The notes below the pieces were generated by a model. It saw only the letters and a program-made list of their open reading frames with translations. It searched no databases and was not told the DNA's origin. Of a stretch of 64,000 nucleotides of DNA, positions 59,143 to 64,000 are shown in pieces. The DNA lies in NCBI GenBank assembly GCA_000827265.1, contig KN834772.1:423526-487525 (forward strand). The letters are read 5' to 3'. How positions within the stretch are numbered: position 1 is the stretch's first letter; each line of letters starts with the position of its first letter. The DNA is from Collybiopsis luxurians FD-317 M1 (taxonomy: Eukaryota > Basidiomycota > Agaricomycetes > Agaricales > Omphalotaceae). The translations under genes and the position numbers were made by a program.

Positions 59143-61334
59143 TTAGACCGAAAGTGTATTCTGAATTGCAGAGATTGAGGGTGAAAAGAAATATTCCCCT
59201 CCGCGTGAAACAACAAAATCTGAACAGCTATATGAGCTAAAATCTGTAGATTATTTATTTGAGATCGCTAACCTTCATTGAATGTAATATTTCTTGTTTG
59301 ATTCTTGGGATCAAGCCCAGAAGCAAACCGTTCGCCATCTAGTGCAACTCCAATAATTGGGTCTTCGCCCTATATTTTACGACATCAAGGACATGCAATC
59401 ATACGTGGAGAACATAAACTTACAACACTGTTGTATTTGCAACGAATTGTTGGTTGGATGCATCAGAAAGGAGAAAAGCTATATATGCAAAATTGTCATG
59501 CACTTACTTGCCTGTGTTTTAGTAAAATCAATCAATTGGAGGTAACTATACGCAGAGCAAAATACAAGTACTCACTTGTATGGAAGCTGAAGGAAGTAAA
59601 ATTTAGCAAGCACATCGACAATACACTGTGCTCCTAGATTATACAATGCCACTCACTTCTTGTTGTTTGCCCAAACCTGCTGAAGGAATGCAAATCCTTG
59701 CCCAATGTTTGATTGATATGAAACTGCAATCGCTCGGTTATTACTATATGCAACATTTGATCGATCAGCCTATCCTCTTACCAAAAGCTAGACCTCGCTC
59801 GAGGCTAGGATCAGTGCTGGAGGAATTGGAAGCATTTTCGGCGTCAGTAACTAAACACGTTGTGTCATCTCTCTGAGCATCAACGTATCCTAATGGAAGA
59901 TATTAGATACCTTCAGGTCCATAAGGTATCCCCGCACGAATGATATGTTGATTGAACGGATTCGCGATGTCTGCACGAGGATTTGTCTTGCGAATGTGTG
60001 CGGAGAAGGGGCAGTAGGACTGGTTTGTTTTAAAGTCGAAGTTGGGATCATCAGGATGCGTAAAGTTGAAATCGTTGTTCCGGTTATGATCCACTGCGAG
60101 GACAGGATCGTCCTTAAGAGGTGTGAGGTCAATAGGAGCACCCTGTAAAAAGTTTGATCAGCGATATTTATATACATATATTGAACGACATTGGTGCTTC
60201 GTGGCACTTACACTTTTCCACCGTCCCACCATGCGAGCACCGAGAAGCTCGGCATTCTCACTCGCATTGAGACCGGGTTCAGAAAGAGCATTGTCAACTA
60301 AGAACTTGTTAAACTCTGGGACGCGTTGCTGAAGTTGACGGAAGGCAAGGAATGAGCCATCTTTGGCCCAATCTGGACGTGTTCCTGTATCTCCCGATTC
60401 GCCAAGAAGGATGATACCAGGATCTACGGTCGCCTGACCTGGGACGGCCACAGCGAAACCACTGACAGCGGGGTTGCTTACTCCATCCAAGAAACCAAAA
60501 TCTACAGAGGATAGACTTTAGTTTGATTTCGAAGGAAAGAGAAAAGACCACTTACGCTCATGTCCCTGTTCATTTCCAGGCCTGGCGTGACCCTGGATCC
60601 TATAGACTTCAGAGATGGAACCCTTTGAAATTTTCTGAATCCGCGATAGTGTGGCTTTCACTTTGTCTATGGTGTCCGACGCCACCAAAAAGACGCCATG
60701 AATGTGGTGACCAGCGAAAGCGGGCTCCCAATAGCTCGTTTGATCTCCGAGAGTTGCAGTAACATTGTACATTTGTCCATTCTTGAAATTTGTATCATTC
60801 AGGTCGTCGCGGATTCCTAGCACATTCAAACCTCTTTGAGAAAAGGCAATGTTGACAGCGGTGGCAGGCGGATGGGTAGCATTTGGAAGGATTTGAGTGG
60901 TTCGGGTAATCAGAGGAAGGATGTCTGAGCCAAGCCGAGACTTGAATGCCGTAGGGTTATCGATGCTGAAGAAGAAGAATAGTTCTTTCTTCTTCCTCAT
61001 ACCAATTCTTTGAATTTAAGTCAATAAAATGTAAGCAAAAGAATCAAAAAAAAGACGTACAGAATGTCGCCCTGGATGTTGCTAAGATTGAGCCCGACAA
61101 CAGCAGACTGAAAAGCTGCTTGCTGTGCGGAAGGCAGAGGCGGAAAACCAGGGGGATCTAACGAAGCATGCACGGTAAGAGCAGAGTACAGATTGAGCAG
61201 CTCATCATGACCTTACCGATAAGAATAGAAGGGTTACTTGCTCGCGGTCTCAAGGCAGAAGGTTCCAGGTTTGGAAAGGCGGACACTGCCTGGCACGTCA
61301 AGGCAGCAAGCAGAGGGGTAAGTGCGAGTTTCAT
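59143..61334 (-). CDS. Secreted dye-decolorizing peroxidase (DyP) 1, with 11-4-4 nt exon series
   Basis: DyP enzymes are heme peroxidases that oxidise dyes and lignin-like aromatics. Exons: 61334-61217, 61157-61061, 61007-60556, 60501-60212, 60142-59911, 59850-59782, 59723-59657, 59586-59576, 59511-59508, 59427-59424, 59369-59273, 59219-59143. They total 1518 nt (505 residues). A signal peptide is present (MKLALTPLLAALTCQAVSA). Family signatures are VGLNLSNIQGDIL, HFGFLDGVSNPA (GxxDG with the catalytic Asp), the heme-side HIRKTNPRAD, FVSYQSNIGQGFAFLQQ, GEDPIIG and the end FVVSRGGEYFFSPSIS. Exons 8, 9 and 10 measure 11, 4 and 4 nt. Together they encode FHTSNV and bridge NNKN to GEDPIIG without a frameshift. 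The same three tiny exons occur in DyP 2, which supports the model. Confidence 0.92.
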
Positions 61335-62877
61335 TTCTTGCAGAAAACCACGTTGGAGTTAGAGAGTGGAATGCAGATTTTGGTGGGTTCATTGTCAGCT
61401 TTTATATCTTGCAAAGTTACAAGCCACGTCCTTGTTCTCCGGTAAAGGAGGAAAGCTCTTGTAGATTCATTGAATCCTTTGCTGAAACAGCTTTTTCCAA
61501 TACTTGGCATAGTACTATGCCATTAATTCTAGTCCGTACTAAGACGAAACAAGGAAAACATATTTTAAAATATCCGCATAAGGGCCACGACTTTTTTAAC
61601 TGGTGCATTTTCGCGAATTCCTAGGCAGTCTGCAAAGAGAAACTCGATACCAGATCTTCAGACGAAGTCATGTTAAGCTTTAGAGGATAATTCAAAGTAT
61701 GGAATAGTACTACCGACATAGCGGAACGGAGGTTCCCATTATATGAGATCTCTTTTTGTACGGATAAGCCTGGGTGAAGACCGGTATGTGTTAGCGCACA
61801 CTCGCAGAGCGCGCGTTGCTAGATTATCGGAACATAATGAGAAGTACCCTGAAGTGGCGTCCTCGATGTCGAAGGGTATAGCAATATTGGAGCTTTCTTT
61901 ACACTTACTTGGTTGGTCCAGGCAATCGGGGAGGAAAACAATTCAAAACCATGCACAGGATTATAAAACCGCCTCGTACCCAGCGATTGCCGCGACTCCA
62001 CTTATTAGTTATCGGTGTCTTGGACTTCCATAGTCTTCGCTGGTCGCATTTTTGAGGAGCCTAAGGAGATAAAAGTGTCTCGGTATACATGAATAAGTGT
62101 ACATAGATTGAACTTGAATACTTTCTGCTTTAAACTAGCGATTCAGTATAGATCCGTCTCAGTACTCATCATCGACTTTAGCGCTTACTTGGCAGGCGAA
62201 GCGGATCAGGACTATTTAATGCTCAATCTCTAGTCTGCTCTTTATGATTCACGAACCGCTTTATATCGAGTCTGGTGGGATATTGAATTCGGTGGCAGGA
62301 TTTTGGTCATCGCCGGTCGACCATAAGAAGGGTAGATAGAGGCAGTTTGAAAGCACTGGTACCGATTTGCACGGCATGATAATAAGTTCCTAGTTCTGCT
62401 GCATGAATAAGTACTGTAGATGCTCAGCACTCAGCGGAAGTGAGGGAGGATCACAATTTGAATCAAACTACTATCCTCGGATGTCGGCCCGTTGTCTATG
62501 ATTAGGTAGACGGTTTTAGACCTTGAACTTATCCGATCATCAAGGGTGGACAAAATGTTACTCGGGATGGATGAGGATGGCCCAAGAAAGAACGTTGAGG
62601 GATGTTGTAGAACAATTTGAGAACACTTGTTTGCTCAGCGGTTCCAAAAAGGGAAGTACATTTGACGTGGGAGCGTCCAGTCTAGACGTCATTTTCGGCG
62701 TGGCTTCTAACGGCGTGACGTCAAGTCTAGGTTTAATATATTCCCAGGACGGTCAAAGCTAGAAATATCAGGTGTTCAGATACAGAACAAAAACCCGGTG
62801 CAATTAATTATATAATTATCATCGGATCAGTACGAAGTAATTTCAGCGAATAAATCAGAACATTCAATTCGGATCTA
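61335..62877. other. Intergenic region between DyP genes
   Basis: This holds the promoter side of DyP 1 and the 3' flank of DyP 2, with an R1 repeat at 62345. Short frames in both strands have no motif. Confidence 0.5.
62345..62406. repeat. Short dispersed repeat R1, copy c
   Basis: Third copy of R1 (GTTTGAAAGCACTGGTACCG...), 4-5 kb from the other two. Confidence 0.5.
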
Positions 62878-64000
62878 TTAGACTGAAAGTGTATTCTGAA
62901 TGGCAGAGATTGAGGGTGAAAAGAAATATTCCCCTCCGCGTGAAACGACAAAATCTGGACAGCTATGAGCTTAAATCTGTATGTATTTGAGAGTGCTAAC
63001 CTTCATTGATTGTAATAGTTCTCGTTTGATTGTTGGGGTCAAGGCCAGCAGGAGACCTAGGTCCATCATTTGGTGCAACTCCGATAATCGGGTCTTCGCC
63101 CTATATTTTCCGACATCAAGGACATGCAATTATACGTAGAGAATGTAAACTTACAACACTGTTGTAATTTGCAATGAATTGTTGATTGGGTGCATCAGAA
63201 AGGAGAACTTGTGTATGTAAAGTTATTTTACACTTACCCGCCTGTGTTTTAGATAAATCAATCAGTTGGAAGCAACAGTACGTGGAGCATAAGGCAGCTA
63301 CTCACTTATGTGGAAGCTGAAGAAAAAAAATATAGCCAGCTCATCGACAATACACCTTGCTAGATGATGCAATGCTACTCACCTGTTGTTGTTTGCCCAA
63401 GAGTGCTGAAGGAATGCAAAGCCTTGCTCAATGTTCGATTGATATGCAACTACAACCACTCGGTTATTACTTTACGCAAGATTCAATTAATCAGTATATC
63501 CTCTTACCAAAAGCTAGACCTCGCTCAAGACTAGGATCAGTGCTAGAGGAATTGGAAGCATTTTCGGCATCAGTAACTAAACAAGTGTGTCATCTATCGA
63601 CATATCCTAATGAAAGAATATTAAATACCTTCAGGTCCATAAGGAATTCCACCACGAATAATGTGTTGCTTGAATGAGGTCGCTATGTCTGCACGTGGGT
63701 TGGTCTTCCGGATGTGTGCGGAGAAGGGACAGTAGGACTGGTTTGTTTTAAAGTCAAAGTTGGGATCATCAGGATGCGTAAAGTTGAAAACGTTGTTCCG
63801 GTTATGATCCGCTCCTAGGACAGGATCATCCTTGAGAGGTGTGAGGTCAATTGGAGCACCCTGTAATAAGGCAGTTAATAAAAGAATATTAGGTGACATA
63901 GGCATTGCGTGGTATTTACACTTTTCCAACGTCCCATCATTCGAGCACCGAGGAGCTGGGCATTCTCACTGGCACTGAGACCGGGTTCAGAAAGAGCATT
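62878..64000 (-). CDS. Secreted dye-decolorizing peroxidase (DyP) 2, 5' part outside the window
   Basis: This is the tandem paralog of DyP 1, cut by the right edge. Visible exons: beyond 64000-63920, 63860-63629, 63576-63508, 63449-63383, 63316-63306 (11 nt), 63241-63238 (4 nt), 63158-63155 (4 nt), 63100-63001 and 62954-62878. Exon lengths equal those of DyP 1 except one exon that is 3 nt longer. It reads SENAQLLGARMMGRWKSGAP, LKDDPVLGADHNRNN, HIRKTNPRAD, YQSNIEQGFAFLQHSWAN, FHISGVGEDPIIGVAPN and ends FVVSRGGEYFFSPSISAI. The frame is intact in all visible parts. Signal peptide and the GxxDG motif lie outside. Confidence 0.9.

What the first reader, a model, noticed from the sequence alone, without database searches (positions are those of the whole stretch)
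59143..64000. Three consecutive microexons (11, 4 and 4 nt) conserved in both tandem DyP genes
In DyP 1 (59586-59576, 59511-59508, 59427-59424) and DyP 2 (63316-63306, 63241-63238, 63158-63155), three exons of 11, 4 and 4 nt follow each other. Each is flanked by standard GT donors and AG acceptors. Only with all three do the phases close (1518 nt in DyP 1) and the conserved GEDPIIG segment join. They encode FHTSNV in DyP 1 and FHISGV in DyP 2. The sequence of the exons differs between copies while length and splice sites are kept, which indicates selection. A run of two adjacent 4-nt exons is extreme for any eukaryote and is invisible to standard gene finders.
Basis: partly seen in the sequence, partly recalled or inferred. 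Interest (0 to 1): 0.9.

Follow-up and report, generated by a model that had tools for sequence, protein, structure and literature searches.

The report
Back-to-back four-base exons in mushroom peroxidases
In a mushroom, genes for a dye-decolorizing peroxidase appear to be assembled from three extremely short coding pieces in a row (11, 4 and 4 bases), an arrangement kept in seven gene copies and misread in most of the public gene models seen.

Summary
At the stated coordinates both DyP genes have exons of 11, 4 and 4 nt between GT and AG sites. Public proteins name the organism Collybiopsis luxurians FD-317 M1. All seven close DyP paralogs in its genome show exactly 11/4/4, while intron lengths agree in only 11 of 84 comparisons. 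A strict pattern of two adjacent 4-nt exons occurs five times in 64.3 Mb, all five in these genes; its reversed control occurs once. The six encoded residues give the loop length of 64 of 117 public DyPs. Six foreign proteins with that loop length recover 11/4/4 in 7 of 7 genes at two of three intron penalties; two with longer loops mostly do not. Five of six listed public models differ here. No transcript was available. A new variant of a known kind: ultra-short coding microexons.

The parts
59143..61334 (-). DyP1 coding region, 12 exons, 505 aa dye-decolorizing peroxidase
   Evidence: model, all GT-AG; public protein P0001, Pfam PF20628/PF21105; solved DyP relatives
59657..59723 (-). DyP1 exon 7 (67 nt) ending WANNK-AA; holds the Trp that aligns with the catalytic surface Trp-377 of Auricularia DyP
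   Evidence: alignment, index; Trp-377 role from PMC4619462 passages
59576..59586 (-). DyP1 exon 8, 11-nt microexon CTTCCATACAA
59508..59511 (-). DyP1 exon 9, 4-nt microexon GCAA
59424..59427 (-). DyP1 exon 10, 4-nt microexon TGTT
59273..59369 (-). DyP1 exon 11, begins GEDPIIG
59587..59656 (-). DyP1 intron 7, 70 nt, GTGAGT...CAG
59512..59575 (-). DyP1 intron 8, 64 nt, GTGAGT...CAG
59428..59507 (-). DyP1 intron 9, 80 nt, GTAAGT...CAG
59370..59423 (-). DyP1 intron 10, 54 nt, GTAAGT...TAG
62878..64000 (-). DyP2 coding region, 3' part (gene continues beyond the window on C24; public protein P0002)
   Evidence: 5' part read in L001
63383..63449 (-). DyP2 exon 7 (67 nt) ending WANNN-AG
63306..63316 (-). 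DyP2 exon 8, 11-nt microexon CTTCCACATAA
63238..63241 (-). DyP2 exon 9, 4-nt microexon GCGG
63155..63158 (-). DyP2 exon 10, 4-nt microexon TGTT
63001..63100 (-). DyP2 exon 11 (100 nt), begins GEDPIIG
62878..62954 (-). DyP2 exon 12 (77 nt with stop)

Best explanation
The stretch is a run of three constitutive coding microexons (11, 4 and 4 nt) in the close DyP paralogs of Collybiopsis luxurians. Four short introns (51-81 nt) lie within 19 coding bases. The spliceosome most likely recognises each short intron as a unit (intron definition) through near-perfect U1-type donors (GTRAGT) and a YAG acceptor. Since an acceptor and the next donor lie only 4 nt apart, factors could hardly sit on both at once, so the introns are probably removed one after another and each microexon is first joined to a neighbour. 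Full inclusion gives six residues (FHTSNV, FHISGV, FHTSGV, FVHSGV, FHFSGI) of the loop that follows the helix carrying the Trp equivalent to the catalytic surface Trp-377. Shown: the arrangement, its invariance in seven paralogs, the frame, the family-typical peptide, the strong donors. Inferred: actual splicing, order of intron removal, constitutive inclusion. In the protein tree the DyP1/2 lineage parts from the C16/C71 lineage before C. luxurians and C. confluens part, so the arrangement is probably at least that old and inherited by all copies.
For: Exact 11/4/4 in 7 of 7 close paralogs, and the only strict pattern shared by all, so microexon length is equal in 63 of 63 comparisons, against 11 of 84 for introns; 0 of 14,000 shuffles; pattern of two 4-nt exons with GTRAGT donors found five times genome-wide, all five in these genes, control one; 64 of 117 public DyPs have exactly this loop length, and C16c's FVHSGV is identical to that of 10 of them, all named Mycena; loop position 5 is G or N in 55 of those 64 and in 7 of 7 paralogs read as 11/4/4; the Phe from the 11-nt exon sits in a column conserved in at least 90% of 45 rows; GTRAGT donors at 25 of 28 cluster introns against 14 of 50 other introns of the same genes, Fisher p 2.4e-7; six foreign proteins recover 11/4/4 in 42 of 42 alignments at intron penalty 18 and 42 of 42 at 26; tree, fork support 94/94 and 99/96.
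Against: No RNA read was available. At the highest intron penalty (34) the same six foreign proteins give 11/4/4 in 29 of 42 alignments, and two proteins with longer loops (P0012, P0031) give it in only 6, 2 and 0 of 14 at the three penalties. A first alignment with cruder splice-site costs chose 15+4 for DyP2 and C16c and 11+8 for C71, 11/4/4 for the other four. Microexon letters are no better conserved (64% mean) than introns (70-75% of ungapped columns; 55-59% overall). 21 of 28 cluster acceptors score below the mean of the other introns. Public model P0003 reads FHTSSV, not FHTSGV.
Confidence: 0.93

Rival explanations
1. A 15-nt exon plus the last 4-nt exon. Exon 8 uses the GT that sits 4 nt inside its donor, and the middle 4-nt block is skipped, again giving 19 nt in frame.
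For: Frame and length fit in the seven genes (peptides); the crude spliced alignment chose 15+4 for DyP2 and C16c, and the high-penalty run chose it in 8 of 42 alignments with the six foreign proteins.
Against: It needs a donor scoring 0.5-4.1 bits where the cluster's donors score 4.6-9.7; it puts Cys at loop position 4 in 5 of 7 genes while 0 of 64 homologs have Cys there; it leaves the YAG-4nt-GTR(A/T)GT block in the middle, present in 7 of 7, without a use. A GT at +4 follows from the GTRAGT consensus itself.
Confidence: 0.04
2. Only one 4-nt exon is included (the 11-nt and the other 4-nt block are skipped), giving a protein five residues shorter.
For: Keeps frame in 7 of 7 genes if introns up to 400 nt are allowed.
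Against: Removes a Phe whose column is at least 90% conserved in 45 rows; none of 117 measured public proteins has a loop five residues shorter than the model (shortest 8 against 10); needs introns of about 140-230 nt (from the positions), where the other 50 introns are 46-102 nt.
Confidence: 0.02
3. The stretch contains longer exons that retain part of an intron, as several public gene models propose.
For: P0001, P0002, P0006, P0008 and P0010 read differently here; for C16d the pattern (11, 38), and for C71 (4, 39) and (11, 29, 39), are open in frame under strict sites.
Against: The five public readings differ from one another; no such pattern is shared by even two paralogs under strict sites; 64 of 117 homologs have exactly the short loop, although 20 of 117 have 17 or more residues there, some of them doubtless real longer loops.
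Confidence: 0.01

Closest known systems
Conserved plant microexons (1-15 nt), e.g. 1-nt exons of APC11 and VPS55, adjacent 5-nt and 12-nt exons in rice (PMC8831610; passages seen)
   Same: Ultra-short coding exons conserved across homologs, missed by annotation; GTRAGT donors noted for the VPS55 1-nt exon
   Different: Plant; the adjacent pair in the passages seen is 5 and 12 nt; here three in a row, two of them 4 nt, in fungal peroxidase genes, without RNA evidence
One-nucleotide exon of Fusarium CYP621A (PMC12940212; parts 1 and 2 of 3 of the text seen)
   Same: Fungal, ultra-short, found by phase mismatch and homolog length, wrong in nearly all public models
   Different: Single exon, ascomycete P450, confirmed there by SRA reads; here a run of three
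Microexons of Phanerochaete chrysosporium P450 genes (PMC1184071; passages seen)
   Same: White-rot basidiomycete, oxidative enzyme family, small introns; shortest exon 6 bp
   Different: Encode 2-10 residues; the passages seen describe no run of back-to-back 4-nt exons
Short exons in fungal class II peroxidase genes (PMC6937255; passages seen)
   Same: Intron-rich fungal peroxidase genes with very short exons, e.g. [quoted passage not shown]
   Different: Another peroxidase superfamily; a terminal exon, not an internal run
RPS24 of human, microexons of 3, 18 and 22 bp in a row (PMC11162997; passages seen)
   Same: Consecutive microexons between two constitutive exons
   Different: Alternatively spliced among tissues; larger on the whole; animal
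Xlr2 20-nt microexon of Trichoderma (PMC11121469; passages seen)
   Same: Filamentous fungus, microexon missed by the JGI model
   Different: Regulated by glucose; one exon of 20 nt

Membership tests
Constitutive coding microexon (ultra-short, 15 nt or less) | Internal exon of 15 nt or less between canonical splice sites | tested here: met
   28 of 28 cluster introns GT-AG in seven genes, donors GTRAGT 25, GTATGT 2, GTGAGC 1
Constitutive coding microexon (ultra-short, 15 nt or less) | Needed for the reading frame and for a conserved stretch of protein | tested here: met
   with the limit that a single 4-nt exon alone also keeps frame
Constitutive coding microexon (ultra-short, 15 nt or less) | Conserved in homologous genes | tested here: met
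   7 of 7 close paralogs in the same genome; the more distant paralogs read (C95, C4, C19) lack it; orthologs in other species not readable as DNA here
Constitutive coding microexon (ultra-short, 15 nt or less) | Included in the mature transcript, in all conditions | not testable with these tools
   no RNA reads of this fungus at hand
Fungal dye-decolorizing peroxidase (DyP) | Sequence relation to solved fungal DyPs and Pfam DyP domains | tested here: met
   20 distinct PDB sequences, best 4w7j E 1.3e-141; PF20628 and PF21105 precomputed for P0001 and P0002
Fungal dye-decolorizing peroxidase (DyP) | GXXDG motif and surface Trp equivalent to Trp-377 | tested here: met
   GFLDG in the translation; Trp aligned and indexed (375 in chain 4uzi, which starts two residues later than 4au9); the motif is named in the abstract start of PMC8230527 in the listing
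Recursive splice site (zero-length exon) | Acceptor directly followed by the next donor | tested here: not met
   acceptor-to-donor distances inside the cluster are 11, 4 and 4 nt in 7 of 7 genes. The scan lists a zero-length candidate at the end of exon 7 in DyP2 and C16c only, because that exon itself ends in CAG or TAG
Stwintron (intron nested in a splice site of another) | An internal intron interrupts a splice site of an outer one | not tested
   nested readings were not enumerated

The most novel reading that the evidence does not exclude
The run works as an all-or-nothing splicing gate. Since 11, 4 and 4 are each not multiples of three, five of the eight inclusion combinations shift the frame and two more lose a conserved Phe, so active enzyme arises only when four closely packed introns are removed in a permitted order; the fungus could control the output of the whole close DyP family through splicing efficiency at this one site.
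Probability: 0.08. Interest if true: 0.85.

Novelty: new variant of a known kind. Interest (0 to 1): 0.62.

Why it matters
Two adjacent 4-nt exons leave little room for splicing factors to bind both flanks at once, so seven natural genes with divergent introns form a ready test set for how a fungal spliceosome orders and recognises introns around almost vanishing exons. It also means that public sequences of this peroxidase family are probably wrong next to the catalytic tryptophan in five of the six C. luxurians models listed, and perhaps in close relatives. No title, abstract start or passage that I saw in nine searches of the open library reports adjacent 4-nt exons or microexons in DyP genes; that library lacks most subscription journals, and most listed papers were not opened.

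Tried and rejected
Chance: rejected by shuffles, paralogs and the genome-wide pattern. The claim that exon letters show selection: not supported, since microexons are no more alike than introns; fixed length is the better argument. The 15+4 reading, the single 4-nt reading and the retained-intron readings: see rivals. Reading P0003 (FHTSSV) as another canonical splice path: the two contiguous 8-nt candidates in C16b have neither an AG before nor a GT after them at once, and no two-piece path with GT or GC donors and AG acceptors yields SSV. Shifting the same junction by two bases (CG joined to AGCGTT, a non-canonical intron) would yield it; that is my inference, the public exon coordinates were not seen. 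Structure prediction of P0003 and P0001: ten-residue blocks in the loop have mean pLDDT 57-62, so the models do not separate right from wrong readings; I used only the position of the Trp at the end of a helix (424-432 in P0003), and ran no fold search. The Pfam PF04261 search of the genome found nothing, probably because that model covers another DyP type; it says nothing against the genes. Two papers opened for microexons or exon sizes held nothing of use (PMC3990503, PMC3129051). A pattern made from the C16b microexons found only C16b itself.

Not done: a search for other double microexons with weaker donors or other lengths, a test of selection by codon models, and any RNA evidence. Weak points of my controls: the 50 other introns come from alignment models, of which one C16a intron (GTTTCT, 102 nt) and one extra C16d intron (GTTCTT) are doubtful; without these two the donor contrast is 25 of 28 against 14 of 48, p 2.8e-7. 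In one search the figure 63 of 63 is printed as a constant; it rests on the equal lengths.
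Full report
What was claimed. Two tandem DyP genes on the minus strand at the right end of the window were said to contain three consecutive exons of 11, 4 and 4 nt.

What is there. The six blocks lie exactly at the stated coordinates, each between CAG and GTGAGT or GTAAGT. I rebuilt DyP1 as 12 exons from 61334 to 59143, 1518 nt, 505 residues, all GT-AG, and the 3' part of DyP2 as exons 6-12, 63576 to 62878, in one open frame. The protein is a fungal dye-decolorizing peroxidase: 20 distinct solved sequences match, the best with E 1.3e-141. 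The window is C24:423526-487525 of a held genome of 64.3 Mb in 200 contigs. Public proteins on a contig of the same length as C24 name the organism Collybiopsis luxurians FD-317 M1. The public models of the two genes are P0001 (GYMLUDRAFT_166740) and P0002 (GYMLUDRAFT_261090).

Paralogs decide the matter. A protein search of the same genome gave 50 matching stretches. Besides DyP1 and DyP2 there are five close copies (C16 at about 708, 768, 773 and 777 kb; C71 at 274 kb) and more distant ones on C19, C95, C4 and C91; I fetched eleven regions. In the five close copies the stretch between WANN (WANS in C16c) and GQDPIIG contains exons of exactly 11, 4 and 4 nt. Enumerating stop-free in-frame paths with GTRNG donors, YAG acceptors and introns of 40-130 nt gives one path in five genes, two in C16d and three in C71, and 11/4/4 is the only pattern common to all seven. 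With looser rules more paths appear: a single 4-nt exon keeps frame in 7 of 7 genes, and with weak donors a 15+4 pattern does too. Microexon lengths are the same in all seven, while intron lengths agree in 11 of 84 pairwise comparisons. The letters of the microexons are not better conserved than the introns: 64% mean identity against 70-75% of ungapped intron columns, or 55-59% overall. So the evidence for constraint is the fixed length, frame and splice sites, not the letters.

Controls. In 2,000 dinucleotide shuffles of each of the seven stretches, exactly 11/4/4 appeared in 0 of 14,000, three inner exons of 15 nt or less in 4, and inner exons summing to 19 nt in 27. A genome-wide pattern of two adjacent 4-nt exons with GTRAGT donors gave five hits on both strands of 64.3 Mb, and all five are these genes; the reversed control pattern gave one. 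The other two paralogs escape that pattern because their middle donor is GTATGT.

Protein evidence. Of 120 listed public homologs (2,520 found), 117 had both motifs, three did not (P0033, P0088, P0091), and 64 of the 117 have exactly the ten residues between WANN and DPIIG that the 11/4/4 model gives. Most of the rest are longer, commonly 13 or 14 residues. The six residues of C16c, FVHSGV, are identical to those of ten public proteins, all named Mycena; the hexapeptides of the other six genes have no exact match among these. Position 4 of the loop is never Cys in the 64, and position 5 is G or N in 55. Read as 11/4/4, the seven genes have S at position 4 and G or N at position 5, whereas the 15+4 rival gives Cys in 5 of 7. 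The Phe from the 11-nt exon lies in a column conserved in at least 90% of 45 aligned rows.

Spliced alignment with foreign proteins. I trained donor and acceptor matrices on 50 other introns of the seven genes and aligned eight foreign proteins to the seven loci. The six with a ten-residue loop returned 11/4/4 in 42 of 42, 42 of 42 and 29 of 42 alignments at penalties 18, 26 and 34. The two with longer loops (P0012, P0031) returned it in 6, 2 and 0 of 14. An earlier cruder run with DyP1 as query chose 11/4/4 in four genes, 15+4 in DyP2 and C16c, and 11+8 in C71. The cluster's donors are unusually strong: GTRAGT in 25 of 28 against 14 of 50 other introns, Fisher p 2.4e-7. Its acceptors are not: 21 of 28 score below the mean of the other introns. 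Strong donors are also described for a plant 1-nt exon (PMC8831610 passages).

Public models. Where the DNA reading has ten residues between WANN and DPIIG, P0001 has thirteen, including EYLYFALRI, P0002 has 25, P0008 26 and P0010 20, and P0006 also reads differently. P0003 has ten, with FHTSSV, one letter different from the DNA reading FHTSGV. P0003, P0006 and P0008 were tied to C16b, C71 and C16c by tblastn; P0010 was tied to C16d only because its peptide equals the alternative path. C16a had no model that I could assign among the listed proteins. Public models of Collybiopsis confluens (P0011, P0014, P0015) are also long here.

History. In a protein tree of 30 rows, DyP1 and DyP2 pair together, and the other five paralogs group with the C. 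confluens copies (99/96) inside a fork of eleven rows (94/94) next to Lentinula. The tree used the alignment models, three of which read the microexon stretch otherwise. The arrangement therefore probably predates the split of the two Collybiopsis species. Of the distant paralogs read, those on C95 (two) and C4 have a single intron at the GQD or GKD site, about one base from the last intron of the cluster, and those on C19 show none there; the C91 copy was not examined. A likely course is one old intron followed by gain of three more within the loop; this is inference. That this species holds DyPs of several clades is also stated in PMC9064869 (passage).

Mechanism. Introns of 51-81 nt with strong donors suit recognition across the intron. 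With 4 nt between an acceptor and the next donor, simultaneous binding is hard to picture, so sequential removal is likely (inference from general knowledge of splicing). Arithmetic on 11, 4 and 4 shows that three of eight inclusion sets keep frame: all three, or either 4-nt exon alone.

Role of the peptide. The Trp of WANN aligns with Auricularia DyP residue 375 of chain 4uzi, which starts two residues later than 4au9, that is Trp-377, named as catalytic in PMC4619462 (passages). The microexons thus encode the loop right after it. Predicted structures put the Trp at the end of a helix but give the loop low confidence.

Novelty. Ultra-short exons are known: 1 nt in plants and Fusarium, 6 bp in Phanerochaete P450 genes, 6 nt in class II peroxidase genes, adjacent 5 and 12 nt in rice, 3, 18 and 22 bp in human RPS24. 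A run containing two adjacent 4-nt exons, fixed in a seven-gene fungal family, was not seen in the searches listed under Why it matters. I rate it a new variant of a known kind.

Noticed in passing
L001 (C24:482000-491999), minus strand, 5' part of DyP2: Public model P0002 of DyP2 also lacks the start of exon 3; the DNA holds an open stretch reading TGMRKMKELFFFFSV that joins to exon 2 by a GTAGGT donor and an AAG acceptor, so this gene is probably misannotated in two places.
   Followed up: partly
window 61008-61060 (DyP1 intron 2) and the same intron in six paralogs: Intron 2 ends in AAG instead of YAG in 7 of 7 paralogs.
   Followed up: no
L040, L041, L042 (C95, C4) and L038, L039 (C19): Distant DyP paralogs have one intron (C95, C4) or none (C19) where the close paralogs have four introns and three microexons.
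   Followed up: partly
public proteins P0011, P0014, P0015 (Collybiopsis confluens), P0005, P0013 (Lentinula), P0044, P0052, P0083 (Moniliophthora roreri), P0070, P0109 (Paramarasmius): Long, mostly unlike stretches at the same loop may hide unrecognised microexons in these species too; P0014 ends its stretch with NSV, as P0002 does where it reads through CAACAG|TGTT.
   Followed up: no
public protein P0016 (contig of 1866 bases): A 501-residue DyP relative on a contig barely longer than its reading frame, so perhaps transcript-derived, also has a six-residue loop, FLHETT.
   Followed up: no
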